Shown: piece after piece, positions 38,362 to 54,705 of the stretch
How the letters are laid out: each line of letters begins with the position of its first letter
Numbering within the stretch: position 1 is the first letter of the stretch
Assembly (NCBI GenBank): GCA_937916485.1
Contig: CALFSV010000118.1
Coordinates: 1 to 64,000 of the forward strand
Length of the DNA stretch: 64,000 nt
Origin: an uncultured Paracoccaceae bacterium
Lineage (GTDB): Bacteria; Pseudomonadota; Alphaproteobacteria; Rhodobacterales; Rhodobacteraceae
Reading direction: 5' to 3'
Position numbers and translations under genes: made by a program
The notes under the pieces: model-generated
Databases searched by the model: none
Seen by the model: the letters and a program-made list of their open reading frames with translations, nothing else
Told to the model about the DNA's origin: nothing

Positions 38362-39300
38362 CTAAACCGGCGGTGGGACGGCGCCGGTGCGCTCTACGAT
38401 CAGGCCGTAGTGTTCGGGGCGGCGATGGGCGGCAAAGTCAAAGATCGTCTCGCGGTAGGTCTGGCCCATATCAAGGTCGCAGCGGGCGGTGATCACCTCA
38501 TCCTCGACCGTGCAGGCCATTGCGACGATTTCGCCCGAGGGGGCGATGATCACGCTTTGACCGCCCATCTTGGAGCCTTCTTCGTTGCCGCATTTCGCGG
38601 TTCCGACGACCCATGTGGCGTTCTGATAGGCCCCGGCCTGCATCGACAGGTGGTTGTGAAACAGGGTCAGGCTGTCCATCGCCTGGACGCCCACATGGCC
38701 AAAGGGGGTGTTGTAGCCCAGCATGACCATCTCAACCGCTTGCAGGCCCATGACGCGGTAGGTTTCGGGCCAGCGGCGGTCGTTGCAGATCGCCATGCCC
38801 ATGATCCCGTCAAAGCCACGAAACACCGGAAAGCCAAGGTCGCCCGGCTCAAAGTACCGCTTTTCGAGGTGCTGAAAGTCGCGGCCGGGCTGAGGTTTAG
38901 AATGGCCGGGCAGGTGGACCTTGCGGTATTTGCCGATGATCGTGCCGGTCGTGTCCACGAGGATCGAGGTGTTGAACCGCCGCTTTACCCCGTTTTCAAC
39001 AGTCAGTTCGGCGTAGCCAAGGTAAAAGCCGATCCCCAGCTTCTTTGCCTCGTCAAACAGCGGCAGGGTGGCCGCACTTGGCATCTCGGTCTCGTAGTAG
39101 CTGTCCAGCTCGGCCTCGTCCTCGATCATCCAGCGCGGAAAGAAGGTGGTCAGCGCCAGTTCGGTGAACACGACCAGCTCGCAGCCCCGTCCCTTTGCCT
39201 CGCGCATCATCTCGATCAGGCGTTTGACCGTATCGGCGCGGGTTTCCGACTTGGCGATGGGGCCCATCTGGGCCGAGGCGGTCAGCAGATAGCGGCTCAT
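38362..39300 (-). CDS. N-carbamoyl-D-amino acid hydrolase
   Basis: 312-residue nitrilase-superfamily enzyme that cleaves N-carbamoyl-D-amino acids to D-amino acid, CO2 and ammonia. The catalytic triad is Glu47 (FTELALTTFFPRW), Lys127 (KYRKVHLPGH) and Cys172 (AICNDRRWPE), the same positions as in Agrobacterium D-carbamoylase, and long stretches such as LEKRYFEPGDLGFPV match that enzyme. Cytoplasmic. The start overlaps the racemase stop as ATGA, coupling racemase and carbamoylase. Confidence 0.92.
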   Translation of the reverse strand: MSRYLLTASAQMGPIAKSETRADTVKRLIEMMREAKGRGCELVVFTELALTTFFPRWMIEDEAELDSYYETEMPSAATLPLFDEAKKLGIGFYLGYAELTVENGVKRRFNTSILVDTTGTIIGKYRKVHLPGHSKPQPGRDFQHLEKRYFEPGDLGFPVFRGFDGIMGMAICNDRRWPETYRVMGLQAVEMVMLGYNTPFGHVGVQAMDSLTLFHNHLSMQAGAYQNATWVVGTAKCGNEEGSKMGGQSVIIAPSGEIVAMACTVEDEVITARCDLDMGQTYRETIFDFAAHRRPEHYGLIVERTGAVPPPV

Positions 39301-39986
39301 GCGGGTTCTCTTTGTGGGGTGGTTGCGGCGGGCAGGGCGACAAGGCGGACCATGGCCTGCGCCATGCCGCAGGCCGCCGCCACGCCGTCGATGACGGGAA
39401 GGCCGTGATCCGACGTCAGCTCTGCAGCCAGATCGGCCATTCCGGCGCAGCCCAGAACAATGGCCCCTGCGCCATCCTCGGCCTTGGCGCGGCCCACTTC
39501 GGCCGAAACGCGGGCGCGGGCGTCCGATCCGGGGCGTTCGAGGTCAAGGACGGGAACCTCGCTTGCTCGGACCTTGAGGCAGTGGGAGGCCAGACCATAG
39601 GTGGCGATGTTGTCCTCGATGATCGGGACCGAAACCGACAGGGTCGTGACCACGCTATAGCGCTGCCCCAGCAGCATGGCGGCGTGAAAGGCGGCCTCTC
39701 CGATCCCGATGACGGGAATATCGACAAGGTTTCGCGCCTCGGCGAGGCCGGTGTCATCAAAACAGGCGATGATGCAGGCGTCCGAGGTAGGCGCGATGCG
39801 GGCGAGTTCGGCTAGAAGATGCGGCAGGGCCGAGGCCCCATCCTCGGCCCCTTGAATCGCGGGGGGGCTGCCAGCGCAGGTGTAGCCGGTAACTATTACG
39901 CCTGGGGCGGCGACGGCCTGCGCGGCTGCGGCGATCTTGTCCGTCATGCTTTGGGTCGAATTGGGGTTGATGACGGCGATGCGCAT
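39297..39986 (-). CDS. Hydantoin racemase (Asp/Glu racemase superfamily)
   Basis: 229-residue cofactor-independent racemase. The two catalytic cysteines are Cys75 (ACFDD) and Cys180 (LGCAGM), 105 residues apart as in Agrobacterium hydantoin racemase. RIAVINPNST at the N-terminus is the family signature. It should interconvert D- and L-5-monosubstituted hydantoins, so both carbamoylases in the island can use one substrate pool. It lies four bases after the permease gene and overlaps the D-carbamoylase. Confidence 0.88.
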   Translation of the reverse strand: MRIAVINPNSTQSMTDKIAAAAQAVAAPGVIVTGYTCAGSPPAIQGAEDGASALPHLLAELARIAPTSDACIIACFDDTGLAEARNLVDIPVIGIGEAAFHAAMLLGQRYSVVTTLSVSVPIIEDNIATYGLASHCLKVRASEVPVLDLERPGSDARARVSAEVGRAKAEDGAGAIVLGCAGMADLAAELTSDHGLPVIDGVAAACGMAQAMVRLVALPAATTPQREPA

Positions 39987-39990
39987 TCTG

Positions 39991-40833
39991 TCAGACCATG
40001 CCCTTGCCAGCGTCCGACCCTTGCCGCGCCCGACGCCGCTGAATGAACAGTGCGATGCACAGGAACACGCCGATGATCGACAGCGAAAACAGGGTGGTCA
40101 GGGTGCCAAGCGCGTAAAGAACCGGCGTGGTGACGTTGGTCGTCATGCCAAAAATCTCAAGCGGCAGGGTGTTATAGCTGCCCGAGGTCAACAAGGTGCG
40201 GGCAAATTCGTCATAGCTGAGGGTAAAGCCGAACAGGGCCACCCCGATCAGCGACGGCGCGATCAGCGGCAGGACGATGTGCTGGAACACCTGCCAAGAT
40301 GTGGCACCCTGATCGCGGGCGGCCTCTTCATACGCCGGATTGAACCGGTTGAAGACGGCGAACATGATCAGCAGGCCGAAGGGCAAGGTCCATGTCAGCT
40401 GGGCGCCAAAGCCTGAGGTGGACCAATGCACATCCCAACCCAGTTGCGAAAAGATCAGGCCAATGCCCAATGACACAAGAATCGAGGGGATCACGAGGCT
40501 GGCCATGATGATGTAGAAGACGATGTTTGAACCGGCGAACCGCTTGCGATAGGCCAGCCCGCCCATGATCGACAGGACGACCGTGGTCACCATGACCATC
40601 AACCCCAAGGCAAGGCTGCGGCGGAACGATCCCCAGATGTCACCCACGGCCTGGGTCTGGAACAGTTCGTCAAACCAGTGCAGCGACACGCCGCGCATCG
40701 GGAAGGTCAGACCACCGCCCGGCCCCTGAAAGCTCAGGATGCCGATGGTGAACGTGGGGCCATAGAGAAAGATCAGGAACAGCACGAAAAAGGCGCCAAG
40801 GATGTAGAAGGAAAGGGGGCGTTTGCCGTCCAT
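39991..40833 (-). CDS. ABC transporter permease (PotC-type), hydantoin operon
   Basis: 280-residue inner-membrane permease with about six hydrophobic segments and the EAA loop YEEAARDQGATSWQVFQHI near residues 171-189. PotC-type permeases pair with PotB-type ones for spermidine/putrescine-like or other small organic substrates. Here the operon content suggests hydantoins, ureido compounds or carbamoyl amino acids. ATG at 40833 has AAGGAG nine bases upstream; the upstream permease stops three bases earlier. Confidence 0.88.
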   Translation of the reverse strand: MDGKRPLSFYILGAFFVLFLIFLYGPTFTIGILSFQGPGGGLTFPMRGVSLHWFDELFQTQAVGDIWGSFRRSLALGLMVMVTTVVLSIMGGLAYRKRFAGSNIVFYIIMASLVIPSILVSLGIGLIFSQLGWDVHWSTSGFGAQLTWTLPFGLLIMFAVFNRFNPAYEEAARDQGATSWQVFQHIVLPLIAPSLIGVALFGFTLSYDEFARTLLTSGSYNTLPLEIFGMTTNVTTPVLYALGTLTTLFSLSIIGVFLCIALFIQRRRARQGSDAGKGMV

Positions 40834-40836
40834 GAT

Positions 40837-41700
40837 CTAAAGCTCCTTCCGGATATCGACGAAGCGCAGCATGATCGCGATGGTGATCAGGACCGTGCAA
40901 AGCAGGACCACGGCGGTTGCGGCGGCTGAGGGATATTGCAGCAATCCGATGTCATTCGAGATCAGCCTGCCGACATTGGCGATCTGAGATCCGGACATGA
41001 AGCGCACGGTGATAAAGTCGCCCATGACAAGCGCCACGACAAAGATCGACCCGATCATGATCCCGGGCTTGGTCAGGGGTATGATCACATTTGTGAGAAT
41101 TTGAAATCCCGAGGCTCCACCATCGCGGGCTGCCTCGATCAGGGATTTATCTATACGCATCATGGTGTTGAATATCGGAACAACCATGAAAAGGGTGTAG
41201 AGGTGGACAAAGGCCAGGATCACCGCAAAGTTGGAAAACAACAACCACTCCAGCGGCTCGTCAATGAGGCCTATGCCGATCAACGACTGGTTCGCGATGC
41301 CGTTTCGCCCCAGAAACGGCACCCACGAGATCATGCGAATGATATTGGAGGTCCAGAACGGGATCGTACACAGCAGGAACAGCGTGATCTGCCAGGTCAG
41401 AGTGTGAACATGGAATGTCAGGAAATAGGCGACGGTAAAACCGATGCTGAGGGTGATTGCCCAGGTGATCAGCGCAAAGGTGAAGGTCTTGATAAAGACG
41501 TTCCAGACAACCTGAGATCCGAACAGATATTCGTAGTTGTCGAACTGGAAGGCGGGATAAATCGAAAATTCGGTTGATCCCCAAAAGCTGACAGCCGTGA
41601 TCATGCCGATCGGCATCAACAGGAAAAACACCAATATCAGCATGATCGGCGAGACGAGCATCCAGCTTTGTGCGCCAGGACGGCGGAAAAGGCGTTCCAT
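40837..41700 (-). CDS. ABC transporter permease (PotB-type), hydantoin operon
   Basis: 287-residue inner-membrane permease; first hydrophobic segment at residues 14-35, EAA loop IEAARDGGASGFQILTNVI near 188-206. The ATG at 41700 was chosen because it gives the short cytoplasmic tail ERLFRRPGAQSW; the frame is open to 41802 over the end of the binding-protein gene, with no membrane character. Partner of the PotC-type permease just downstream. Confidence 0.87.
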   Translation of the reverse strand: MERLFRRPGAQSWMLVSPIMLILVFFLLMPIGMITAVSFWGSTEFSIYPAFQFDNYEYLFGSQVVWNVFIKTFTFALITWAITLSIGFTVAYFLTFHVHTLTWQITLFLLCTIPFWTSNIIRMISWVPFLGRNGIANQSLIGIGLIDEPLEWLLFSNFAVILAFVHLYTLFMVVPIFNTMMRIDKSLIEAARDGGASGFQILTNVIIPLTKPGIMIGSIFVVALVMGDFITVRFMSGSQIANVGRLISNDIGLLQYPSAAATAVVLLCTVLITIAIMLRFVDIRKEL

Positions 41701-41777
41701 GTCTATGCTCCGTCGCATGCCGGGGAAGGGGGACGCCCCCCGCTGATGCGGGAGGCGTGATTGATGTCGCTGCCCGA

Positions 41778-43055
41778 TCAGGCTGCGATGAACTCGTTCC
41801 ACTTGCGGACCATGTACTGGTTCTCGTCCATGACAGAGTTCCAGCAGGCAACAGCGCCCATACGGTCGATGAAGGAGCCGCCGTCACGCACTGCGCCGGG
41901 ACCTTCGAGGAGCTGGCCGCCGGGGGCCACGATGTCGCCCACCGATTCCTTGCCCTCGTACCAGTAGCCCCACTCGTCCTCGGACATGTACAGCTTGGAG
42001 GTTTCGGGAACGGCCGAGTAGTAGCCCTGCCGCATGAGGAAGCCGCCGACCCAACCGGACAGATACCAGTTGATATACTCATAGGCTGCGTCAAGCTTGG
42101 CGCCTTCCAGCGTGGCGGCCAGACCCATGCCGCCACCCCAGCTGCGGTAGCCCTCTTCGAGCGGCTGGTAGACGCAAGGAATGCCCTGCGACCGCACGGC
42201 GGTGATGGCGGGTGACCACATGGACTGGATCACGACCTCACCCGAAGCCATCAGGTTGACGCTTTCGTCGAACGACTTCCAGAAGGCGCGGAACTGGCCG
42301 TTCTTCTTGGCCTCGGTGAAGATGCCGATGGTCAGGTCGATCTCTTCGCGGGTCATGTTGCCCTTGTCGGGGTACTGGTATTCGCCCATCGATTCGACGA
42401 CCATCGCCATGTCCATGATGCCGATCGACGAGATGTCGAGGATCGACGCCTTGCCCGCAAACTCCGGGTTCAGCAGTTCGGACCAATTGGTGATCGGACG
42501 GCCGATCAGGTCGGGGCGGATGCCCAGAGTGTCGGCGTTGTAGATCGTGGGGATCAGGGTCATCCAGCCGGACTCTTCCTGAACAAAGTCGGTGCCGTCG
42601 ACGCCGGTGGTAAAGCCCACGGTGTGCGGGGCGGTGCCCTGAGCAATCTCGCTGGTCGGTGTCAGCTTGCCCGAGCGGAAGGTGCCCGCGATCTTGTCGT
42701 AGTTCGCGATCCGGCTGGTATCCATCGCCTGAAGGTTGCCGGTGGGCCAGACCTTCTTGCAAATCCAGTATTCGATGTCCGCGATGTCAAAGCTGTTGGC
42801 CTGTGTGGCGACGCGCTGAGTGACCGAGTCGGAGTCGAGGGCGGTCATCTCAAGCGTGATACCCAGATCCTCGAACGCCTTTTCGGCGATTTCGTTGAAT
42901 GCGGACACGCCCGTACCGGCCTGGCGCAGAACGATATTCGACTGCGCCCAAAGCATAGGGGCAGAGAGAGACGCCCCGGCGGCGGTGGCGCTTGCGGCGG
43001 CGCCCTTAAGAAGGGTGCGGCGGCTAAGTCCGTTCTTTTTAGTGTATTTGGTCAT
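41778..43055 (-). CDS. ABC transporter substrate-binding protein (PotD-type), hydantoin operon
   Basis: 425-residue periplasmic binding protein. The N-terminus LSRRTLLKGAAASATAAG is a Tat signal, cleaved near LWAQS (about residue 40). The mature part has the extracellular solute-binding family-1/PotD pattern and ends with DEWGYWYEGK and MVRKWNEFIAA. It is clearly paralogous to the signal-less protein at 49599-50753, which shares the late block (LDAAYEYINW, RQGYYSAVPE). ATG at 43055 has AAGGAG seven bases upstream; a TTG three bases earlier is less likely. Confidence 0.88.
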   Translation of the reverse strand: MTKYTKKNGLSRRTLLKGAAASATAAGASLSAPMLWAQSNIVLRQAGTGVSAFNEIAEKAFEDLGITLEMTALDSDSVTQRVATQANSFDIADIEYWICKKVWPTGNLQAMDTSRIANYDKIAGTFRSGKLTPTSEIAQGTAPHTVGFTTGVDGTDFVQEESGWMTLIPTIYNADTLGIRPDLIGRPITNWSELLNPEFAGKASILDISSIGIMDMAMVVESMGEYQYPDKGNMTREEIDLTIGIFTEAKKNGQFRAFWKSFDESVNLMASGEVVIQSMWSPAITAVRSQGIPCVYQPLEEGYRSWGGGMGLAATLEGAKLDAAYEYINWYLSGWVGGFLMRQGYYSAVPETSKLYMSEDEWGYWYEGKESVGDIVAPGGQLLEGPGAVRDGGSFIDRMGAVACWNSVMDENQYMVRKWNEFIAA

Positions 43056-43111: not shown

Positions 43112-44095
43112 TCAGCGGGTCAACAGGTGCAGGTCCTGACTGTCCCAGCCGACGCGCACGGTGGCGCCGGGTTCGATTGGCGCGGCAAAAAAGCCGTCCT
43201 CGGGGATCATCGCGGTGATCGCCGTGTCGCCGGGACCGATCATGCCAAGTGCTACATGGGTGCCCAGAAATTCGACCGAGGTGACAGCGGCATCCAGCCC
43301 TTCGACAGGCTTTTCCACCAGCCGAAGACGGTCGGACCGCAGGGCATAGTGTTTGCCCTCAAGCGAGATGACGTTGTGGCCGCCCAGAAAGCGGGCGACA
43401 AATTCGGTCTGGGGGGCGTTGAACACCTCACGCGCAGTTCCGGCCTGCTCGATCACCGCGTTGTTCATGACGACGACCTCGTCGGCGAGCGCCAGAGCCT
43501 CGTCCTGACCATGGGTGACGTGGACAAAGGTGATGCCCAATTCGCGCTGCAGCTTCTTCAACTCGCCCCGCATCCGGATGCGCAGGAACGGGTCAAGGGC
43601 GGAAAGCGGCTCATCCAGCAGCAGGACCTGGGGGTTCGTGATTAGCGCCCGGGCAAGCGCTGCCCGCTGTTGTTGACCGCCCGAAAGCTGTGCGGGCAGG
43701 CGCAGGGCCAGTTCGTCCATGCCGACCAGCTCAAGCAACTCGTGTGCCTTGCCGTGCCGGGTCTTCTTGTCGACGCCTTGCATTTTCAGGCTGAAGGCGA
43801 CGTTGTCGAGGATCGTCATATGCGGGAACAGCGCATAGGACTGAAACATCATCGCCGTGCCCCGCTTGGCCGGGGGCAGGCCGGAAATATCGCGTCCGTT
43901 CAGGAGGATAGCCCCATCGCTGACGCTTTCATGCCCCGCGATCATCCGCAGGGTCGATGATTTGCCGCAGCCCGACGGCCCCAGAAGGCAGACGTAGGCG
44001 CCGGGCGTAAACACATGGGACACGTTGTCCACGGCCACGGCAGAGCCGTAGCGTTTGGTCACGTGAACAAGTTCCAGATCATTTTGGGACCGCAC
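43112..44095 (-). CDS. ABC transporter ATP-binding protein (PotA-type), hydantoin operon
   Basis: 327-residue ATPase: Walker [10 protein letters not shown] near residue 39, Q-loop FQSYALFPH near 83, signature LSGGQQQRAALARA near 137, Walker B VLLLDEPLSALDP near 157, switch VTHGQDEA near 193 (Gly where Asp is usual). A TOBE domain follows. The start is GTG at 44095 with GGGAGGG upstream. It opens a nine-gene minus-strand run ending with the CobW gene at 36130. Confidence 0.88.
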   Translation of the reverse strand: MRSQNDLELVHVTKRYGSAVAVDNVSHVFTPGAYVCLLGPSGCGKSSTLRMIAGHESVSDGAILLNGRDISGLPPAKRGTAMMFQSYALFPHMTILDNVAFSLKMQGVDKKTRHGKAHELLELVGMDELALRLPAQLSGGQQQRAALARALITNPQVLLLDEPLSALDPFLRIRMRGELKKLQRELGITFVHVTHGQDEALALADEVVVMNNAVIEQAGTAREVFNAPQTEFVARFLGGHNVISLEGKHYALRSDRLRLVEKPVEGLDAAVTSVEFLGTHVALGMIGPGDTAITAMIPEDGFFAAPIEPGATVRVGWDSQDLHLLTR

Positions 44096-44279: not shown

Positions 44280-45521
44280 CTAATAGGCCAACTCGAATAG
44301 CGCGCCGGCAAGCACCTGGATGCCTGCCACGATGTCGTCGATGGTCGAAAATTCCTCGGGTGTGTGGCTGCGCCCGTCTTCGCTACGCACGAAAACCATG
44401 GCGACGGGGCAGATGCGTGCGATCTGCTGGGCGTCGTGCCCTGCGCCGCTTGCCATATGCAATGCAGGGATGCCCTGACGTTTCGCCGACGCCTCAAGGG
44501 CTGCAATCAGGGCGGGGTCGCTGGGGCTGCCGGGATGGTCGAACAGAACGAGGGTTTCCAGCCCAAGGCCGCGCCGTTCGGCGATCTCGGTCAGGGTCGC
44601 CGCGTGGGCGGCGTGCATCCGCGCCGCCTCGTCCTGTATCGGGTGTCGGGCGTCGACAGTAAAGGTGACGGACCGGGGGATGATGGCAGGCGCATTGGGC
44701 GACACATGGCATCGTCCGATGGTCGTCACCGCGGGGCGGCCCATCCGGTGCGCATGGTCGATCAGGCGCGACGCCACTTCGGCAAAGCCCGCCATTGGGT
44801 CGCGCCGCAGATCCATCGGAAAGGCCCCGGCGTGGTTCTGTTCGCCGGTCAGGGTGACCTCGGTATGCCGGATCGCGGTGATACCGGTGACCACAGCCAC
44901 GGGAATATCGGCGTGCTCCAACACCGGCCCCTGTTCGATGTGCAGTTCAACAAATGCGGCGATATCGTCGCGTTTCGCCTCGTCCAGCCGGGCCGGATCA
45001 AGGCCAACCGCCTGCATGGCCTGACCTATGGTGCCGCCATTCGCCTCCTTTACCGTGTCGGGATCCGTTGGGCTGACCCGCCCAACAAGCGCGCGAGAGC
45101 CCCAGAAGCCGGCGGTCGGAAAACGGCTACCCTCCTCTTCGCAAAGCGACACCATTTCGAGGGGGCGTTTAGGCGGGCCAAAGGTTTTCACCAGCGTCTT
45201 GATCGCAACAAGCGCCGCGATAACCCCGAGCGCACCATCATAGCGCCCACCCGGACATTGGCTGTCGATGTGAGAGCCGGAAACGATGGCCTTGCCCCCG
45301 TCGCTCCCCTCGATCCTGCCCCAAAGGTTGCCGGCTGCATCCATCCGGGTGGTCAGTCCGGCGGCGGTGGCCCAGTCCTCTACCATCGCATTGGCGGCGA
45401 CCCAGTCGTCGGAAAAGGCAGTCCGCCAGACTCCGGTTTCGGAATGCGCCCCGATGGCGCCAAGCGTCATGATCATGGTTTCAACTTCGACCGCATCGAT
45501 GGCGGGTATGGGGTTGGTCAT
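44280..45521 (-). CDS. N-carbamoyl-L-amino acid hydrolase / allantoate amidohydrolase family (M20)
   Basis: 413-residue di-metal amidohydrolase of the M20/AmaB-HyuC group. Metal ligands are visible in GSHIDSQCPGGRYDGALGV near residue 82 and in the tandem acidic CEEEGSRFPTAGFWGSRA near 128; VELHIEQGPVLE and GITAIRHTEVTLTGEQNHAG follow near 197-236. It cleaves carbamoyl groups from L-carbamoyl amino acids or ureido acids such as allantoate. ATG at 45521 has GAAGGAG eight bases upstream; GTG at 45530 abuts that site. It precedes the ABC operon by 184 bases. Confidence 0.86.
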   Translation of the reverse strand: MTNPIPAIDAVEVETMIMTLGAIGAHSETGVWRTAFSDDWVAANAMVEDWATAAGLTTRMDAAGNLWGRIEGSDGGKAIVSGSHIDSQCPGGRYDGALGVIAALVAIKTLVKTFGPPKRPLEMVSLCEEEGSRFPTAGFWGSRALVGRVSPTDPDTVKEANGGTIGQAMQAVGLDPARLDEAKRDDIAAFVELHIEQGPVLEHADIPVAVVTGITAIRHTEVTLTGEQNHAGAFPMDLRRDPMAGFAEVASRLIDHAHRMGRPAVTTIGRCHVSPNAPAIIPRSVTFTVDARHPIQDEAARMHAAHAATLTEIAERRGLGLETLVLFDHPGSPSDPALIAALEASAKRQGIPALHMASGAGHDAQQIARICPVAMVFVRSEDGRSHTPEEFSTIDDIVAGIQVLAGALFELAY

Positions 45522-45709
45522 GGCGCGCACTCCTTCAGGGACAAACCGACGATGCCGCCAATCTGTGCACCCGCCCAGAGCGGATGGCGTCTTTTGGACC
45601 GAGTCGGCGGTCTGTAAATGTGAACTGCCCTGTTCGGGTCTTTGGGCCCTGTCGGGTGCTGAAACTCTAGGCGGAGTCGAAAGGGTCCGGGTCTGCTGGC
45701 CTCAAATAA

Positions 45710-45764: not shown

Positions 45765-47843
45765 ATGAAAGCGATTGGTGTGGATGTGGGCGGGACCTTC
45801 ACGGATCTCATCTATTGCGATCTCGCGACGGGTGCCCTTGGCATTCATAAGGTATCGACTACGCCCGATGATCCGTCGCGTGGCGTGATGGAGGGGATTG
45901 CCGCCCTTTGCGCGATGAACGGGGTGGCGCCGGGCGAGATCGAGCATGTGTTCCACGGCACCACCACGGCCACCAATGCGGTGCTAGAGGGCAAAGGCGC
46001 CCGCACCGGCATGATCACCAACGAAGGCTTTCGCGACATCCTGCACATCGGGCGGCACCAGCGGGTCGAACACTATTCGATCATGCAAGAGCTGCCCTGG
46101 CAAAACCGCCCCCTGATCCAGCGCCGCTATCGCAAGACGGTCGGCGGCCGCCTGATCCCGCCCACAGGGGCCGAGCTTGTCCCGTTGGACGAAGAGGGCG
46201 TGGCGCAGGCCGCAGAAGAGTTGAAGGCCGCCGGGGTCGAATCCGTGGCGATCTGTTTCCTGTTTTCCTACCTCAACCCGGCACACGAGCTTCGGGCCAA
46301 AGAGATCGTCGAGACGGTGATGCCCGACGCCTTTGTCACGACCTCATCCTTCATCTCTCCTCAGTTCCGCGAGTTTGAGCGGTTCACGACAGCGGCCCTC
46401 GCCGCCTTTGTCGGCCCCAAGGTTGATCGCTACATCGCGGGCCTTGGACAGGCGTTGCAGGACATCGGCGTCAAGGGCGACCTGCGCGTGATGGCGTCGA
46501 ACGGCGGGGTGGCGACCCCCCGGATGGTGACGGAAAAGCCCGCCTTGACCCTTTTGTCGGGGCTGGCGGCAGGTGTTTTGGGCGGCGGCTGGATCGGGGC
46601 GCAATGCGACCGGTCCCGGCTGATCACCTTTGACATCGGCGGAACCTCTGCCGACATCGGCATCGTCGTTGACGGGGTGTTTGCAGAAACCGACGCCCGC
46701 TCGACCTCGATCGCGGGCTTTCCCTTGCTGATGCCGATGCTGGACATTCATACCATTGGCGCCGGTGGCGGCTCTATCGCCCATGTCGACCGGGGGGGCG
46801 CTTTCCGGGTCGGGCCGCAAAGTGCGGGCGCGGTTCCCGGACCCGCCGCTTACGGCCGGGGCGGGACAGAGCCTACGGTAACGGACGCCAACCTTGTGCT
46901 GGGCCGGTTAGACCCCGGTGATTTCCTTGGGGGCGACATGGGTCTTGATGTCGAAGCCTCTCGCGCTGTTATCGGGGAACTCGCCAAGACCCTCGGCCTT
47001 GGCCTTTTGGAAACCGCCGAAGGGGTCCTGACGATCCTGAACGCCAATATGGCCAACGCCATCCGGTCGCGCACCGTGCAAAAGGGGATCGACCCGCGCG
47101 GATTTGCCCTTGTCGCCATGGGCGGGGCAGGGCCGCTGCATGGGGCCGATGTGGCCGCCATGTTGCAGGTGCCCGAGGTGATCGTGCCGCCCTATCCGGG
47201 GATCACATCGGCCATGGGCCTATTGACGACCGATCTGAAATACGACGCGATCCGCACGCAATTTCAGGTCTCGGTCAGCCTCGACGTTGCCCGCGTGGCC
47301 GGCGACTGCGCCGAGATGGAGGCCGAGCTTGCCGCCCGTTTTGCCGATGACGGTGTGCCCGCTGCAGATGTCGAGTATCTGCGCAGCGGTGACCTGCGCT
47401 ATGTGGGCCAGGGGTATGAGCTGAAGGTTCCCTTGCCCTCCGGCCTCATTGATGCGGCGGGGATGGCGCAGGTCTGGGAGGATTTTCACGCCGCCCACGC
47501 CGCCGAATATGGCCATGCCTTCCGCGAAAGCCCGATCGAGCTTGTCAACGTCCGCGTCACAGGCCGGGGGCCATTGCCCAAGCTGGCCGCCATGACAGCG
47601 CCGGCGGGCGGGTCGCTTGAGGCGGCTCTGGTCCGCCAGTCCGACTGTGTGTTCCGGGGGGCCGGCGGGTTGGAAACCCATAAGACGCCGGTCTATCGCC
47701 GGGATCAGCTGCCAGTCGATACCCCCTTCGACGGTCCCGCGATCCTTTTGCAAAAGGACAGCACGACCGTTGTCCCACCGCTGGCCCGTGCCGTCGTCCA
47801 CCCTTCGGGCAGTATCATCATCACATTGGGAGCCGCCGCATGA
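45765..47843 (+). CDS. hyuA: Hydantoinase/oxoprolinase subunit A
   Basis: 692-residue ATP-dependent hydantoinase A (N-methylhydantoinase/5-oxoprolinase N-terminal half). The actin-like nucleotide fold is marked by GVDVGGTFTDLIYCD at residue 4, HGTTTATNAVLEGKGA near 64, the TFDIGGTSADIG phosphate loop near 287 and GAGGGSIAHVD near 330. With HyuB it opens imide rings (hydantoins, N-methylhydantoin, oxoproline) using ATP. Its stop overlaps hyuB as ATGA. It diverges from the carbamoylase gene. Confidence 0.92.
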   Translation: MKAIGVDVGGTFTDLIYCDLATGALGIHKVSTTPDDPSRGVMEGIAALCAMNGVAPGEIEHVFHGTTTATNAVLEGKGARTGMITNEGFRDILHIGRHQRVEHYSIMQELPWQNRPLIQRRYRKTVGGRLIPPTGAELVPLDEEGVAQAAEELKAAGVESVAICFLFSYLNPAHELRAKEIVETVMPDAFVTTSSFISPQFREFERFTTAALAAFVGPKVDRYIAGLGQALQDIGVKGDLRVMASNGGVATPRMVTEKPALTLLSGLAAGVLGGGWIGAQCDRSRLITFDIGGTSADIGIVVDGVFAETDARSTSIAGFPLLMPMLDIHTIGAGGGSIAHVDRGGAFRVGPQSAGAVPGPAAYGRGGTEPTVTDANLVLGRLDPGDFLGGDMGLDVEASRAVIGELAKTLGLGLLETAEGVLTILNANMANAIRSRTVQKGIDPRGFALVAMGGAGPLHGADVAAMLQVPEVIVPPYPGITSAMGLLTTDLKYDAIRTQFQVSVSLDVARVAGDCAEMEAELAARFADDGVPAADVEYLRSGDLRYVGQGYELKVPLPSGLIDAAGMAQVWEDFHAAHAAEYGHAFRESPIELVNVRVTGRGPLPKLAAMTAPAGGSLEAALVRQSDCVFRGAGGLETHKTPVYRRDQLPVDTPFDGPAILLQKDSTTVVPPLARAVVHPSGSIIITLGAAA

Positions 47844-49588
47844 CCCGGATTGACCCGATCACCGCCACCGTCATCCAGGGCGGGCTTGAGAACATCGCCA
47901 TCGAGATGGGGCACAAGCTGATGCGCATGTCCTACTCCTCGATCATTCGGGAATCCGAGGATTTCGGGGCCGCCCTGACCGATGCGACCGGTCGCCAGAT
48001 GTGCGAATGCAAGATGTCGACCCCGCTCCAATCCGGCCCGATCCCGGGTTATGTGCGCAACGTTCTTGAGGTGCTCAAGGGGCGGGGCGACCCGATCCGC
48101 CCTGGCGATGTGATCATGCACAACGATCCCTATGGCGGGGCCAGCCACGGCCCCGATGTCGCCTTTTGTGTGCCGGTGTTTCACAAGGACGCCCTGATCG
48201 GATGGTCCGTAACCACCGCCCACCATCTGGATATCGGGGCCCTCAGCCCCGGCAGCTGTGGCATCGTGGACGCGGTCGATACCTATGCCGAGGGCCTGCA
48301 ATTCAAGGCGATCAAGGTCTATGACCGTGGCGAAAAGAACGAGGCCGTCTGGCATATCCTGCGCGCGAACATCCGGGCGCAAGAGCTTGTGGTGGGGGAT
48401 ATGGAGGCGCAGATCGAGGCTGCTCGTATCGGTGCCGCCCGCTTTCTTTCGCTGGTCGAGGGCTATGGCATCGACGATGTCTATGCCGCCTTCGAAGACC
48501 TGATGGACTACTCCGAGCGGCTGATGCGCGACGCCATCCGTGACCTGCCTAACGGAGACTACACGGCGACAACCCATCTGGACGGCTATCTCGACGATCC
48601 CGATCCGACGCGCCACCATCTGCCGCTTGTTGTCACGCTTAAGGTGCGCGGTGACACTCTGACGGTCGATCTTACTGGCACCGCCCCGCAACTGCCGGAC
48701 AAGCCGGTCAATATGCCCCTTGTGGGCACCGTCGATTGCGCGGTCTGGCTGACGATCCGGTCGATCCTTCTGGACAGCGCGGTCTATGGACCGATCCCCC
48801 AGAACTCGGGCCTGACCCGCCCGATCGAGATCGTTGCCCCGCGTGGCTGTATGGCCAACCCGATCTTTCCGGCCCCCGTCATTGCCCGCTTCTGCTCGGG
48901 CAACCAGTTGGCCGATACGGTGATGAAGGCGCTTGCACAGGCCGTGCCGCATCAGGTGTCGGCGGGCATCGGCAACCTGCGCGTCGTTGCCATTTCGGGC
49001 CTAAACGAGGGCAACCATTGGGTCCATATGGAAATCATGGAAGGCAGCTATGGCGGCCGCTACGGGATGGACGGGATGGACGCGGTCGATACGCTATACG
49101 CCAACACCCGCAACAACCCTGTCGAAGATATCGAAAGCCATATCCCCCTGCGCGTCGATAGATACGAACTGCGTGAAGACAGGGTTGCCCCCGGCGAATG
49201 GCGCGGCGGGATCGGGACGATCCGGGAGTTTACCTTCCTCGACGATGCGGGCTTTTCCCTCGAAGGGGATGGGCACGCGTTCAAGCCCTGGGGCTTTGAG
49301 GGCGGTGCAGAAGGACATGTCGCCTCATTGACCCTGCGCGGGATCAACGGGGATGAGAGGGCGCTGCCCTCCAAGGTGCCCTATTGCAAGGTCCGGGCGG
49401 GCGAGCGGTTGATTTCAACCGGACCCTGTGGCGGCGGCTATGGCATCGGGTTTGAACGCGATCCCGAGGCCGTCGCCTCGGACGTGGCGGACGAACTGAT
49501 CCCGGCGGAAACGGCCTTGCGCGATTTTGGGGTGGTTCTGATCGACGGCAAGGTGGATCACGCGGCGACGGCGGCGGCCCGCGCATAG
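47840..49588 (+). CDS. hyuB: Hydantoinase/oxoprolinase subunit B
   Basis: 582-residue partner of HyuA. Family features: PITATVIQGGLENIAIEMG at the start, SIIRESEDFGAALTDATG near 34, the metal-site HNDPYGGASHGPDV near 94, and EIMEGSYGGRYGMDG near 397 with the C-terminal GPCGGGYGIGFERDPE. Cytoplasmic heteromer with HyuA; acetone carboxylase beta/alpha subunits are relatives but the neighbours favour hydantoinase. Convergent with the next gene, ten bases away. Confidence 0.92.
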   Translation: MTRIDPITATVIQGGLENIAIEMGHKLMRMSYSSIIRESEDFGAALTDATGRQMCECKMSTPLQSGPIPGYVRNVLEVLKGRGDPIRPGDVIMHNDPYGGASHGPDVAFCVPVFHKDALIGWSVTTAHHLDIGALSPGSCGIVDAVDTYAEGLQFKAIKVYDRGEKNEAVWHILRANIRAQELVVGDMEAQIEAARIGAARFLSLVEGYGIDDVYAAFEDLMDYSERLMRDAIRDLPNGDYTATTHLDGYLDDPDPTRHHLPLVVTLKVRGDTLTVDLTGTAPQLPDKPVNMPLVGTVDCAVWLTIRSILLDSAVYGPIPQNSGLTRPIEIVAPRGCMANPIFPAPVIARFCSGNQLADTVMKALAQAVPHQVSAGIGNLRVVAISGLNEGNHWVHMEIMEGSYGGRYGMDGMDAVDTLYANTRNNPVEDIESHIPLRVDRYELREDRVAPGEWRGGIGTIREFTFLDDAGFSLEGDGHAFKPWGFEGGAEGHVASLTLRGINGDERALPSKVPYCKVRAGERLISTGPCGGGYGIGFERDPEAVASDVADELIPAETALRDFGVVLIDGKVDHAATAAARA

Positions 49589-49598
49589 GCGGGGGCCA

Positions 49599-50753
49599 TC
49601 ACGCCTCTAGAAAGTCGCGCCAGCGGCGCACGACGTGGGTGTGTTCGTCCATAAAGGTGTTCCAAACCCGCGCCCTGCTCATCCTTTCGCGATGCGACCC
49701 GCCTTCGCGGCGATGGCCGGTGGGCACGCAAATGCGGCCTTCGGGATCGGGCAGGGGGCGGGCGGCGCGAATGCCGCCGTACCAATAGTCCCACTCATCC
49801 GGGTGCAGATGCCCCCTGATCCTGTCGGGAAAGGTCGCGTAATAGCCTTGCCGTGCGAAACAGGCCCCGGCCCAACCGTCCTGGCACCAGTTGAGAAAGT
49901 CATAAGCCGCATCCAGCGTTTCCCCGCCGGTCGCGGCCGAAATGCACAGGTCCGAATGCCAGCCCCGACACCCTTCGGCCGGGGTCGAGATGACGATGGG
50001 CACGCCCAGCCCCCGCAGCTTTGCCGCCGCTGGGGAAAAGATGGTCTGCAAGACCACGCCGCCCCGCTGGATCAGGCGGACGGCATCCTCGGCCTGCGAC
50101 CAGACGCCTTTGAAATGGCCGATCTTCTTTTTGTGGATCAGGGTGTCGATGACTTCGTCGACCTCTTCGACGGACAGGTTTCCTATGTCCTCAAAGCTCA
50201 GACCGCGCGACGCTTCGACCGCCAATGCCCCTTCGATGATGCCCAGAACCGGGTCGCCGATCAGACCGACTTGGCCTGCCCAACGCGGGTCAAGCATCCA
50301 GCCCCAGGTCGCGGCCTCATTCGGGGCCAGCCCGTCGCGCAGGGCGGCCAGATAGCCAAAGCTGTCGACCCCGTGGACCAGTGGCAGCATGGACAACCGG
50401 TCTGACGGGGTGCGGGCCAAAGTGCCATCGGGCTGCACGAAAAGCTTGTCAAAGACGGTGTCGATGACCTTGCTGACCCCGGATTGGGACTGGGCCGCGG
50501 CCATGATCTCGGGCCCGGTCTTGAGGCGGGCAAGGTCGATGGCCTGAATGCAGCGGGCGGTCCAGATCAGATCGACCGTGTGCCATTGCAGGTAGACGTC
50601 AAAGCTTTCGGGGCGCGTCACGACCCGCTGCAACCCTTCGATCCCGTCGATCAGCTCGAATTCCACCGGAAAGTCGAGCTCTTCGGCTGCCTTTTGGCGA
50701 ATGGGCAGGGGCAAAAGCTCGCTTCTGCCGATGACACGCAAGGGGCGCTGCAT
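49599..50753 (-). CDS. Signal-less PotD-type binding-protein homologue coupled to GntR
   Basis: 384-residue protein with the fold of a periplasmic spermidine/putrescine-type binding protein but no signal peptide: it begins MQRPLRVIGRSELLPLPIRQ directly at the first strand. It parallels the exported protein at 41778-43055 to the end (LDAAYDFLNWCQDGWAG, RQGYYATFPD, DEWDYWYGG, VVRRWRDFLEA). The ATG at 50753 is one base from the GntR stop, so the two are co-translated. A cytoplasmic ligand-sensing partner for that regulator is the natural hypothesis; a transporter component that lost its signal is the alternative. The frame is open upstream but inside the GntR gene. Confidence 0.8.
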   Translation of the reverse strand: MQRPLRVIGRSELLPLPIRQKAAEELDFPVEFELIDGIEGLQRVVTRPESFDVYLQWHTVDLIWTARCIQAIDLARLKTGPEIMAAAQSQSGVSKVIDTVFDKLFVQPDGTLARTPSDRLSMLPLVHGVDSFGYLAALRDGLAPNEAATWGWMLDPRWAGQVGLIGDPVLGIIEGALAVEASRGLSFEDIGNLSVEEVDEVIDTLIHKKKIGHFKGVWSQAEDAVRLIQRGGVVLQTIFSPAAAKLRGLGVPIVISTPAEGCRGWHSDLCISAATGGETLDAAYDFLNWCQDGWAGACFARQGYYATFPDRIRGHLHPDEWDYWYGGIRAARPLPDPEGRICVPTGHRREGGSHRERMSRARVWNTFMDEHTHVVRRWRDFLEA

Positions 50754-50754
50754 C

Positions 50755-51735
50755 CTAGACCAGCCTTGTGAGGTAGGGGGCAATGGACGGATCGCCGAAG
50801 ACGGCCAGCACCTTGAGCCGGTCGCGGGTCCGGATATGGTCGGCATCCAGATGATGGCGCAGCGCCATCGCCGCCCCGGTGCCGTCGCGGATCGCCAGAT
50901 GGTCCAGCACCAGCCGGTGTTCCAGCAGCATCGCGGTTTCGTCATGGCGGGCGATGTAGGTGGCGAAAAGCCGGTTCACGACAAAGGACAGCTGCGCATT
51001 GCGCACCACCTGCGCGAGCCGCAGGTTCCGCAAAGGGCTAAGGCAGGTGACATGAAGGTCGGTTTCCAGCCGGTCGAGCATATCCTCGGTCAAAGTCTGT
51101 TCGGCAGAGAGCGCGGAGGCGGCCCGCCCGCGCATCGCGGCCACCATGCCAAGGTCAAGGGCCGGGGCGGCCCGGTCCAATGCCGCAGGCTCTACGATTT
51201 GGCGGATGTCGTGCAGATCGTCGAGCATCCGCGCACTCAGCGGTCCGGCGATCCAATGCGAGGCCCTGTCCTTGGAGATTGTGCCGCGGTCGTGCAGCCG
51301 GGCGAGAACCTCGCGGGTGACGGTCCGGCTGACCTTGAAATGGTCGCAGATGCCCGATTCAGAGATCTGGTAGATGCCAAAGGGGATGGCGTTCATCATC
51401 TCCTGATCGACCTTCTGCACGATCATCTCCCAACTGGGGGGGACGAGGGCGGTGGTCTCATTGCCGGGCAGGTGCAGGTCCAGAAGGTGCAGGTTCGGAC
51501 GGGTTGTATCGTGGACGACCGTTCGGCCCACCACATAGCCCCGCGCCCCGTCCCGGGTCACGACGCCTTCGTCCGACAATAACTCCAACGCACGTTTGAC
51601 AGGCGACCGGCTGACGGACAGCCGGTCCGCTACCGCAGCCACATAAAGCCGGGTGCCTTGGGGCAAGGCACCTTCCCCGATGTTCAGGGCAAGCACGTCG
51701 CGCACGATCTCGTAATATGCCTTATGAACGTTCAA
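50755..51735 (-). CDS. GntR-family regulator with two winged helices and an FCD domain
   Basis: 326-residue regulator, about 80 longer than ordinary FadR-type proteins. Residues 1-72 are a typical GntR winged helix (AVADRLSVSRSPVKRALELL, wing ARGYVVG). A second winged helix follows at about 103-165 (ISESGICDHFKVSRTVTREVL, then HWIAGPLS). Residues 168-315 form an all-helical FCD domain with the Asp/His metal positions in LETDLH, LEHRLVLDH and RHHLDADH. FCD domains bind small carboxylates. The start is TTG at 51735 and is uncertain. It is one base from the binding-protein homologue and probably controls the hydantoin island. Confidence 0.85.
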   Translation of the reverse strand: MNVHKAYYEIVRDVLALNIGEGALPQGTRLYVAAVADRLSVSRSPVKRALELLSDEGVVTRDGARGYVVGRTVVHDTTRPNLHLLDLHLPGNETTALVPPSWEMIVQKVDQEMMNAIPFGIYQISESGICDHFKVSRTVTREVLARLHDRGTISKDRASHWIAGPLSARMLDDLHDIRQIVEPAALDRAAPALDLGMVAAMRGRAASALSAEQTLTEDMLDRLETDLHVTCLSPLRNLRLAQVVRNAQLSFVVNRLFATYIARHDETAMLLEHRLVLDHLAIRDGTGAAMALRHHLDADHIRTRDRLKVLAVFGDPSIAPYLTRLV

Positions 51736-53031: not shown

Positions 53032-53598
53032 CTTGCTGGGTCTCCATCCGTGTTGTGCATTCGGGTCGGTCCGTCGGGTCGGTCAGTCGGGCCAGTCCCT
53101 GGGCGGCGTCCCCAAATATGACCAACGCCATCTTGGTATGGCGGGCCCGCTGTCACAAGCGGGGGCAAAGGGTCGATGTCCCCAAAGACCTTATCCCGAG
53201 GGGTACTCGACAATTTTTCGGTCAGTCTGACGCATTTTGCGGCGGTAGCCGGCAGGCTGCGCCGCTTTTGTTGGCGAAGAGGAAAATCCGGTTTGACCAC
53301 TGCCTTTGGTTTCCGCGACTTGTTGACGGGTCTTGGTTGCCCATTGGGCCGCCCAACCGGTCACCCAGTCGTTTGTCGGTGGTTTGACCGAACGGATTTT
53401 GCGCCGCCAGGGCAAAGCGAATGATGGTATCACCTCAATCAAATCAGCACAGATTGAGGGGGTCCCCTCACGAGTGTTTCGGGGAATGATCGTTTCCCCT
53501 CATCGGGCGATGATGGAATCTTTTCAGGAAATGCCGCTTGGGCCCTCCAACCGATGGGCCTATCCTGTGACCGACCCGGCCGGGAAAGGCGTTTGACC
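53032..53598. other. 567-base intergenic region between divergent quinone reductase and DUF1612 genes
   Basis: The largest gene-free stretch in the window. It must hold promoters for both divergent genes. Near 53063-53098 the GTCGG motif recurs several times (GGTCGGTCCGTCGGGTCGGTCAGTCGGG). The right part (53455-53502) carries a cluster of palindromes described separately. I see no supported gene or RNA; short open frames here lack ribosome sites and family features. It is slightly less GC-rich than the genes, as expected for regulatory DNA. Confidence 0.55.
53455..53502. promoter_or_regulatory. Palindrome cluster upstream of the DUF1612/HTH gene
   Basis: TGAGGGG-GT-CCCCTCA (53455-53470) is a perfect 7-2-7 inverted repeat. 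GGGGAA (53481-53486) and TTCCCC (53494-53499) form another. The octamer TCCCCTCA occurs at 53463 and 53495, exactly 32 bases or three helical turns apart. The set ends about 97 bases before the start of a helix-turn-helix protein, suggesting an autoregulatory operator. Confidence 0.5.
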
Positions 53599-54705
53599 AT
53601 GACACCACCTCATACACAACAGGGTGATCCCCCGGAAACCGATGTGTCGGACGAGGCCGACCTGTGGTTCCTGCAGGGACCGATCGAAGAGGATGCTGTT
53701 CAAAGTAAGTCGGGGCAAAGTGTGCCGGGGAAAAGAGTGCCGGGGCCGTCTGTGACCGGGACAAGCGCTCCCAATCCGCCCGCAAGGGCTGACGAGGTTG
53801 AAACCCTCACCCCCTGGATCAGAGCCGAGGCGCAGAATGCCGCAAAGCTGGGCCAGGCGGCGGCCCTCTTGGGGGCACTGGACGACCGGTTGGGCCGGGT
53901 TCCTGACGGTTGGCGCCAACGCCTCGCCCTTTTGGAGGCGGTCGAGATCGGCTGGCTGGCGGGGGATCGGGTGGGGCTGGATCAACTGTCGTTGTGGCTA
54001 TCCCTGCGCCTGACCCGGATGCAGGACGACGCCCAGGCGCTTGCGCGCACCGGATGGGCGGTGCGTCGGCTGACCGGGCAACTGCGCCCCGTCACCTACC
54101 TGATCCGCTTTCTTGGGCGATCAGAGGCGTCGGCGGAGGGGGATGATCGTCTGTCGGACCGGGTGGAAGGCTGGACCGCGATGATGTCGGCAGCGTCGGA
54201 CCTTCATCCGATCAGCCGTGCAGCAGTTGGTTTTAACCTTTGGTCTCTTGCCGGGCTTGGCCACCAGGGTGACCGGCTGGAGGCGGCGGTGACAGCCGCC
54301 CGGTTTGCCGCGTCCGACAGCCGGGGCGGCGCGGTGTTTGCACCGATTGCCCTAGGCGGCGGCACGGGGCTGCGCGCCTATGGCCCGCCGTCGGCCCGAA
54401 TGGCCCAGTGGTACGATGGTTTGTCCAATGCCGTTCGTGCCGCCATGCGCCACCTTGATGCGCTCGAGGCCTGGCAGAACGCCGCGACGTCGGCCATTGC
54501 GCCCCTGTCCGGACGAACCCCGGCGCGGCTGTTGCAGGTGGTGGCGGAATGGCCCGTCGTCTCGGCCCGGATGGCGGAAGAGGCGACAGGTGCCAGCCGC
54601 GCCGCCATTCAGCGCAACCTGACCTGGATGGAAGATAAGGGCCTTCTGCGCGAGGTGACGGGGCAGGGCCGTTTCCGCTATTGGGCGGCCCGTCTATCGC
54701 CCTGA
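53599..54705 (+). CDS. DUF1612 / helix-turn-helix protein
   Basis: 368-residue protein resembling rhizobial DUF1612-HTH proteins often found on plasmids. Residues 1-65 are Pro/Ser/Gly-rich and probably disordered. A helical DUF1612-like region follows (AAALLGALDDRLGRVPDGWRQ near 92, AVEIGWLAGD near 117), and a C-terminal winged-helix segment covers about 315-365 (VSARMAEEATGASRAAIQRNLTWMEDKGLL). It is likely a DNA-binding regulator, with no demonstrated role. The ATG at 53599 is chosen over 53554 for lack of conservation upstream; its ribosome site is weak. The 3' end overlaps the convergent ATPase gene by 28 bases. Confidence 0.75.
   Translation: MTPPHTQQGDPPETDVSDEADLWFLQGPIEEDAVQSKSGQSVPGKRVPGPSVTGTSAPNPPARADEVETLTPWIRAEAQNAAKLGQAAALLGALDDRLGRVPDGWRQRLALLEAVEIGWLAGDRVGLDQLSLWLSLRLTRMQDDAQALARTGWAVRRLTGQLRPVTYLIRFLGRSEASAEGDDRLSDRVEGWTAMMSAASDLHPISRAAVGFNLWSLAGLGHQGDRLEAAVTAARFAASDSRGGAVFAPIALGGGTGLRAYGPPSARMAQWYDGLSNAVRAAMRHLDALEAWQNAATSAIAPLSGRTPARLLQVVAEWPVVSARMAEEATGASRAAIQRNLTWMEDKGLLREVTGQGRFRYWAARLSP

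What the first reader, a model, noticed from the sequence alone, without database searches (positions are those of the whole stretch)
49599..51735. Cytoplasmic binding-protein homologue co-translated with a GntR regulator
The PotD-type protein at 49599-50753 has no signal peptide, begins one base after the GntR/FCD stop, and is paralogous along its length to the Tat-exported binding protein at 41778-43055 that belongs to the ABC operon of the same island. A duplicate of the transporter's ligand receptor seems to have been retained in the cytoplasm next to the regulator. I infer that it senses the imported ligand and modulates the GntR protein: a two-part cytoplasmic sensor. I know of no described system of this form, but I could not search.
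Basis: partly seen in the sequence, partly recalled or inferred. Interest (0 to 1): 0.75.

Follow-up and report, generated by a model that had tools for sequence, protein, structure and literature searches.

The report
Cytoplasmic binding protein partnering a regulator
A protein family that looks like a nutrient-uptake receptor has lost its export signal in many bacteria; its gene travels with a GntR-type gene regulator and is sometimes fused to it, so it is probably the regulator's nutrient sensor.

Summary
The 384-aa PotD-like protein (cSBP, 49599-50753, minus) starts one base after the GntR stop, shows no signal peptide, and is 30% identical over 374 residues to the Tat-type exported receptor of the neighbouring ABC operon. 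It is not a recent copy of that receptor: all 61 cSBP-family rows form one clade (SH-aLRT 100) in an 88-row tree. The GntR lies directly upstream in 16 of 16 informative loci, and on the same contig within about 12 kb in 38 of 40 cSBP genomes from two orders. Gene order varies (GntR-cSBP, cSBP-GntR, convergent), and the transporter may be Pot, Opp, sugar ABC or MFS type. Best of all, 14 natural proteins fuse the GntR-FCD regulator to a whole cSBP. Best reading: a two-protein, sometimes fused, cytoplasmic ligand sensor for hydantoin or amide catabolism. Against it: in 19 of the 40 genomes the immediate neighbour is a CobW GTPase instead. Ligand, contact and effect on DNA binding are not shown; a model of a fusion left the domain arrangement open (pTM 0.56). 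New variant of a known kind.

The parts
49599..50753 (-). cSBP: signal-less PotD-type binding protein, 384 aa
50755..51735 (-). GntR-family regulator with two winged helices and an FCD domain, 326 aa; stop codon one base before the cSBP start
41778..43055 (-). Tat-type exported PotD-like binding protein of the ABC operon (distant paralogue of cSBP)
43112..44095 (-). ABC transporter ATPase with TOBE_2
40837..41802 (-). ABC permease, PotB-like
39991..40833 (-). ABC permease, PotC-like
39297..39986 (-). Asp/Glu/hydantoin racemase
38362..39300 (-). carbon-nitrogen hydrolase (best NCBIfam match N-carbamoylputrescine amidase, below its cut-off)
44280..45530 (-). M20-type hydrolase
45765..47843 (+). 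hydantoinase/oxoprolinase subunit A (best NCBIfam match caprolactamase alpha, below its cut-off)
47840..49588 (+). hydantoinase/oxoprolinase subunit B, ending 10 bases from the convergent cSBP stop

Best explanation
The protein is the stand-alone cytoplasmic sensor subunit of a GntR-family regulator. An exported PotD-type receptor lost its signal peptide long ago and became the partner of a double-winged-helix, FCD-type GntR protein. In this cluster it would bind a cytoplasmic compound of the hydantoin/N-carbamoyl-amide pathway, close on it, and in that state bind or release the GntR dimer and so change transcription of the hydantoinase and transporter operons. Shown by comparison: absence of an export signal, shared ancestry, conserved linkage, co-inheritance, natural fusion. 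Inferred: ligand class, physical contact of the separate proteins, direction of the effect.
For: Natural fusions: 14 proteins of 727-806 aa hold the GntR helices, FCD, a basic linker of roughly 20-30 residues and a full cSBP. GntR directly upstream of cSBP in 16 of 16 loci with upstream DNA, gene ends from a 1-nt overlap to about 10 nt apart (start codons chosen by me). In 371 Rhodobacterales genomes 20 hold cSBP and 19 of these hold the GntR on the same contig; all 19 genomes with a GntR of 271 bits or more hold cSBP. In 397 Hyphomicrobiales genomes, 19 of 20. Over the 40: 19 adjacent, 19 at about 5-12 kb, 2 without. Order varies: GntR-cSBP, cSBP-GntR, convergent, fused. Distances of GntR and cSBP correlate at r = 0.96 over 49 pairs (permuted maximum 0.15; one pair is a duplicate, L011/L146); in the same 21 loci GntR-cSBP 0.98, GntR-exported SBP 0.77. 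The pair stays while the transporter is Pot-type (window), Opp-type (L010), sugar-type (L005) or MFS (L051, L052, L056, L058). Two of three likely FCD metal His are lost in 10 of 33 GntR proteins, all ten with cSBP adjacent. E260, G261, R263 and W265 are conserved in cSBP and exported receptors alike.
Against: In all 19 genomes where the GntR is distant, cSBP sits directly behind a CobW GTPase in the same orientation, so half of the family has another immediate neighbour and is not co-transcribed with the GntR. In 23 of 33 GntR proteins, the window's included, the likely FCD metal residues are intact, so the GntR may sense a ligand by itself; 19 of those 23 also have cSBP adjacent, so adjacency does not predict loss of the site. 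The model of a natural fusion has pTM 0.56 and an uncertain linker: no fixed docking is predicted. No common operator was found. Seven of 371 genomes hold a weaker GntR relative (214-253 bits) without cSBP. The sampled fusions (7 of 14) form one clade, so they count as one event. No binding or expression data exist.
Confidence: 0.72

Rival explanations
1. cSBP is a metabolic component: a cytoplasmic carrier, chaperone or enzyme subunit of the amide/hydantoin pathway. It is clustered with the regulator only because both belong to the same regulon.
For: In 19 of 40 genomes cSBP directly follows a CobW GTPase and a small protein inside the catabolic operon (also plasmid loci). cSBP-specific conserved residues Y54, Q56 and H58 could form a new site. 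Cytoplasmic SBP-fold enzymes are known (THI5/NMT1, recalled).
Against: Natural fusion to a DNA-binding protein; adjacency to GntR in several orders; no one enzyme among those I searched for is present in all cluster types in the stretches read.
Confidence: 0.16
2. cSBP works with the GntR only where it is adjacent or fused, and has a second job or a different partner (CobW) in the other clusters. This is not exclusive of the best explanation.
For: A clean split in 40 genomes: GntR next door in 19, CobW next door in 19, a partial CobW in G596, neither seen in G1012.
Against: A dual-helix GntR is still in the same cluster in those 19 CobW cases; the tree interleaves cluster types; the plasmid locus L051 has both neighbours.
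Confidence: 0.3
3. It is a second receptor for the transporter, exported by a missed signal or another route.
For: Family resemblance to the exported receptor.
Against: In-frame stops at most 20 codons upstream in 13 distinct loci, and an RR motif with a hydrophobic stretch in 0 of 51 rows tested; fusion behind a DNA-binding protein; clusters with unrelated transporters.
Confidence: 0.02
4. A decaying or hitch-hiking duplicate without function.
For: None found, beyond one degenerate cluster (L106).
Against: Conservation of length and core residues across 53 and 60 aligned relatives; occurrence in alpha-, beta- and gammaproteobacteria.
Confidence: 0.02

Closest known systems
SgrR / DsvR transcription factors
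   Same: A DNA-binding domain joined to a solute-binding-protein domain used in the cytoplasm (passages of PMC13060122).
   Different: There the helix-turn-helix is SgrR-type and the binding domain is SBP_bac_5; here GntR-FCD with a PotD-type protein, usually as two separate proteins.
AraR subfamily of GntR regulators
   Same: GntR winged helix joined to a binding-protein-like domain (passage of PMC4494728).
   Different: AraR has a GalR/LacI-type domain instead of FCD, one winged helix (recalled) and no separate subunit.
E. coli PotD as inhibitor of potABCD transcription
   Same: A PotD-type receptor with its ligand lowers transcription of its own uptake operon (passages of PMC4951125).
   Different: PotD is the transporter's receptor itself; here a separate signal-less family goes with a specific regulator.
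PlmA-PipX-PII
   Same: A GntR-family regulator that binds a separate partner complex tied to metabolite signalling (abstract and passages of PMC5083789).
   Different: The partner is PipX with PII, not a binding protein.
FadR/FCD-type GntR regulators
   Same: GntR winged helix plus FCD domain.
   Different: Two winged helices, a protein partner, and loss of two likely FCD metal His in 10 of 33.

Membership tests
PotD-type solute-binding protein fold | Two-domain binding-protein fold nearest to PotD/PotF | tested here: met
   Foldseek best hits VcPotD1, YdcS, PotD, PotF; profile hits in the PDB
ABC-transporter receptor (exported) | Signal peptide or lipoprotein signal | tested here: not met
   (simple hydropathy and RR-motif test, no SignalP; lipobox not scored)
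ABC-transporter receptor (exported) | Constant association with a matching permease/ATPase set | tested here: not met
   Pot, Opp, sugar or MFS transporters beside different members
GntR regulators of the FCD type | GntR winged helix and FCD domain above the Pfam cut-off | tested here: met
   (GntR 56.3 bits, FCD 33.2 bits)
GntR regulators of the FCD type | Metal residues of FCD (acidic residue, three His) | tested here: inconclusive
   Kept in the window protein and in 23 of 33 in all; two His lost in 10 of 33. Which residues bind metal is recalled
SgrR family | SBP_bac_5 domain in the same chain | tested here: not met
   Window proteins: no such Pfam match; fusions: precomputed Pfam lists GntR and FCD in 14 of 14, HTH_Crp_2 in 13, SBP_bac_8 in some, no SBP_bac_5
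AraR subfamily | GalR/LacI-type C-terminal domain | tested here: not met
   FCD and PotD-type domain instead
Ligand-sensing regulator subunit | Binds ligand and alters DNA binding of the partner | not testable with these tools
   needs biochemistry
THI5/NMT1-type cytoplasmic SBP-fold enzyme | Catalytic activity | not tested
   considered from recall only

The most novel reading that the evidence does not exclude
A widespread class of bacterial regulators in which a domesticated transport receptor, as a separate cytoplasmic protein or fused in one chain, gives an FCD-type GntR regulator a second ligand input. The set would show step by step how a transport receptor becomes a transcription-factor subunit: exported paralogue, free partner in either gene order, partner with the FCD metal site lost, and fusion.
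Probability: 0.6. Interest if true: 0.8.

Novelty: new variant of a known kind. Interest (0 to 1): 0.7.

Why it matters
Binding-protein folds are known inside transcription factors, but the route from transporter to regulator is usually only inferred. Here the proposed stages still coexist in relatives, from separate genes to full fusion, so the step can be tested directly. Members of the family are annotated as extracellular solute-binding protein, or even 'signal peptide prediction', so location and role are misread in databases. If right, it also names the regulator of many uncharacterised hydantoin and amide pathways and offers ready sensor parts.

Tried and rejected
Recent duplication of the window's receptor: rejected by the tree. 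Missed signal peptide: rejected. Random sample of the class: 1 of 385 alphaproteobacterial genomes had a member at over 50% identity (G002) and one more a distant member (G100, 37%, locus L023/L153), so that sample says little on linkage. Operator search by palindromes in about 300-base upstream regions of GntR, hydantoinase and ATPase genes: at most 3 regions shared a word, no more than in shuffles. Co-folding: only single chains could be modelled; the natural fusion gave pTM 0.56, no evidence for or against docking. An alignment mixing half-length rows with the concatenate (A4) seemed misaligned and was dropped. Fusions were not found in the plasmid collection (the 4 records covering at least 80% of the query are each in two pieces) nor among the places listed for 397 Hyphomicrobiales genomes (listing cut off). 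Polyamines as ligand: thought less likely, since the acidic residue at PotF position 247 of the PotD-like variants has no acidic counterpart in cSBP in the alignment; suggestive only. Literature: ten searches, of which 67 and 95-97 looked for known precedents, listed no description of a cytoplasmic PotD-type partner of a GntR protein; most subscription papers are not held.

Full report
WHAT IS THERE. The minus strand holds a GntR-family gene (50755-51735) and, one base after its stop codon, a 384-residue gene (49599-50753). The first has a GntR helix and an FCD domain above Pfam cut-offs and a second winged helix. The second, here called cSBP, passes no Pfam model at 1e-3, yet matches the exported receptor of the neighbouring ABC operon at 30% identity over 374 residues, and its model (pLDDT 91.4) is nearest to PotD, PotF and YdcS structures. 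Around them lie a hydantoinase/oxoprolinase pair, a hydantoin-type racemase, a carbon-nitrogen hydrolase, an M20 hydrolase and a Pot-type ABC transporter.

NO SIGNAL PEPTIDE. The N-terminus of cSBP aligns with the mature start of the exported paralogue. In the window upstream start codons in the same frame exist, but they read through the GntR gene and yield no RR motif and only a modest hydropathy peak. Relatives help more: in 13 distinct loci (L002, L003, L004, L007, L008, L009, L010, L014, L049, L104, L106, L107, L108) an in-frame stop lies at most 20 codons before the conserved core. By a simple test on the tree rows with N-terminal DNA, 0 of 51 cSBP rows show an RR motif with a hydrophobic stretch, against 21 of 27 comparison rows. 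Single features do occur in cSBP rows: an RR motif in L048, and a hydropathy peak of 1.1 or more in the window, L055 and L056, in stretches that run into upstream genes. No dedicated signal-peptide program was available.

FAMILY AND TREE. A protein search gave 807 relatives; most of the 120 listed are 380-400 residues long. In a quick maximum-likelihood tree of 88 rows chosen by me, all 61 cSBP-family rows, cut out of loci, proteins or fusions, form one clade (SH-aLRT 100) apart from 27 comparison rows. So the family is old and cSBP is not a recent copy of this operon's receptor. A caveat: three of the 27 comparison rows (L030, L034, L040) also show no RR motif and may lack a signal; they lie elsewhere in the tree, among the exported receptors.

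LINKAGE. The scan of one genome per species gave 17 loci. In 16 of 16 with upstream DNA the GntR is directly upstream on the same strand (cut by the contig end in L003); the seventeenth, L015, begins inside cSBP. From the positions, with the start codon nearest the GntR end taken by me, the gap runs from a 1-base overlap to about 10 bases; it is exactly one base in the window and in L001, L002, L003, L010, L012, L013, L014 and L048. In 371 Rhodobacterales genomes the cSBP profile splits sharply: 20 genomes at 405 bits or more, the next match at 369 or less, the latter lying in ABC operons where inspected (L080-L089). A GntR profile on the same 371 found 19 genomes at 271 bits or more, all of them among the 20 and on the same contig. 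The exception, G596, has a degenerate cluster. Seven further genomes hold weaker GntR relatives (214-253 bits) without cSBP. In 397 Hyphomicrobiales genomes 20 hold cSBP and 19 of these hold the GntR; the exception lies on a 6.8-kb contig. Over the 40 genomes, 19 are adjacent, 19 lie about 5-12 kb apart in the same cluster, and 2 show none. Caveats: both profiles contain members from these clusters, so scores are raised by construction; only a few candidates per genome were scored; the cut-offs were set after seeing the gap; and G001, G002 and G1060 are the genomes of L012, L010 and L011. Of 12 plasmid loci read, 10 have the GntR within about 10 kb (and the annotations); for L053 and L055 none was seen in the stretch, and the listing (60 of 106 records) does not decide.

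TWO KINDS OF NEIGHBOUR. In the 19 distant cases, 9 Rhodobacterales and 10 Hyphomicrobiales, cSBP directly follows a CobW GTPase and a protein of about 105 residues. So the immediate neighbour is GntR in 19 genomes and CobW in 19, with a partial CobW in G596. This is the strongest point against a simple one-partner reading; the GntR is still in the cluster in those 19.

GENE ORDER AND TRANSPORTERS. Adjacent pairs come as GntR then cSBP (window type, also L049 and L090), cSBP then GntR (L092-L095, L098, L100, L102, L103, L140-L142) and convergent neighbours (L023/L153, L144, L145); in plasmid loci also GntR downstream (L051) or divergent (L057). The transport system changes too: Pot-type in the window, Opp-type in Bradyrhizobium L010 and sugar-type in Reyranella L005, MFS in L051, L052, L056 and L058. 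A pair that stays together while order, enzymes and transporter change is best explained by a shared task.

CO-INHERITANCE. Over 49 pairs (43 loci, one of them a duplicate, and 6 fusions) the distance matrices of GntR and cSBP correlate at 0.96, against at most 0.15 after permutation. In the 21 loci that also hold an exported SBP the values are 0.98 for GntR-cSBP and 0.77 for GntR-exported SBP (duplicate L011/L146). Most distant CobW-type cases are not in this set, because their GntR lay outside the stretch fetched. Common descent alone makes such values high; the contrast is the informative part.

NATURAL FUSIONS. Searching with a concatenate of the two window proteins found 14 proteins of 727-806 residues that align from end to end: both winged helices, FCD, a linker rich in Arg and Lys, and the full cSBP, 48-50% identical to the concatenate. 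Two shorter hits (P0260, P0261) hold only part of the GntR half. I saw no organism names for them; P0250 and P0258 lie on contigs of 1.36 Mb and 153 kb. The seven fusions placed on the tree form one clade, sister to the separate 388-residue P0092 and next to the window's group, so they count as one event. A fusion to a DNA-binding protein puts this receptor-like domain in the cytoplasm in those proteins and joins it to the regulator.

MECHANISM. Residues E260, G261, R263 and W265 and others are conserved in both cSBP and exported receptors, while Y54, Q56 and H58 are particular to cSBP (43 cSBP rows against 17 exported rows). By a very weak alignment (about 5 bits there) that stretch falls near the PotF loop changed in the specificity variants named. 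I infer that cSBP still binds a ligand, perhaps related to but not the same as the transporter's. The enzymes suggest a hydantoin, N-carbamoyl or similar amide. In the GntR proteins the likely metal residues of FCD (E224, H228, H273, H295) are kept in 23 of 33, and two His are lost in 10 of 33; all ten have cSBP adjacent, but so do 19 of the 23 that keep the site. Among the 14 fusions 10 keep all four. This suggests that sensing can pass from FCD to cSBP, but the window's own GntR keeps the site and may sense on its own. The step 'ligand-bound cSBP changes DNA binding' is inference. The model of the fusion P0250 (pLDDT 81.3, pTM 0.56) leaves the domain placement open.

KNOWN RELATIVES. E. coli PotD with spermidine is reported to inhibit transcription of the potABCD operon (passages of PMC4951125). 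SgrR-like factors carry an SBP_bac_5 domain behind a helix-turn-helix (passages of PMC13060122). AraR joins a GntR helix to a GalR/LacI-type domain (passage of PMC4494728). PlmA is a GntR regulator with a protein partner (abstract and passages of PMC5083789). None of these combines FCD-type GntR with a PotD-type protein. Ten searches of the open-access library listed no description of it; absence there is weak evidence.

VERDICT. Observation confirmed; sensor idea well supported at the level of partnership and location, unproven at the level of ligand and effect; origin story corrected. New variant of a known kind, interest 0.70.

Noticed in passing
L053:5542-8161, L054:5579-8149, L091, L096, L097, L099, L101, L104, L105, L107, L108, L114-L123: A three-gene module: a small protein of about 105 residues (no Pfam family above its cut-off in the two scanned), a CobW-type GTPase and cSBP, in clusters with an allantoinase-like deacetylase or amidase in many. 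What a CobW GTPase does next to a binding-protein relative is unknown.
   Followed up: partly
L150-L152 (G043, G171, G268; rows L030, L034, L040 of the tree): A possible second lineage of receptor-like proteins without clear signal peptide, nested among exported receptors. In L151 it lies near an amidohydrolase and an MFS gene; no ABC genes of the searched kinds were seen in any of the three stretches.
   Followed up: partly
Plasmid records CP129670.1, NZ_CP147633.1, NZ_CP062119.1 and others: Members of the cSBP family carry the product name 'signal peptide prediction' although no signal peptide is apparent: an annotation artefact worth correcting.
   Followed up: no
window 53554-56557: A further ABC transporter ATPase and permease pair (minus strand), with an ORF carrying an HTH_13 match on the plus strand next to it, beyond the described cluster.
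   Followed up: no
L007:9940-10020: GntR and cSBP lie in the same reading frame, separated by a stop and a few codons; the fusion proteins align across both halves of this locus in one stretch.
   Followed up: partly
window 50750-50760 and the same place in L001, L002, L003, L010, L012, L013, L014, L048: A gap of exactly one base between the GntR stop and the cSBP start recurs in nine sequences including the window, and overlaps or gaps up to about 10 bases in the others, which suggests coupled translation.
   Followed up: partly
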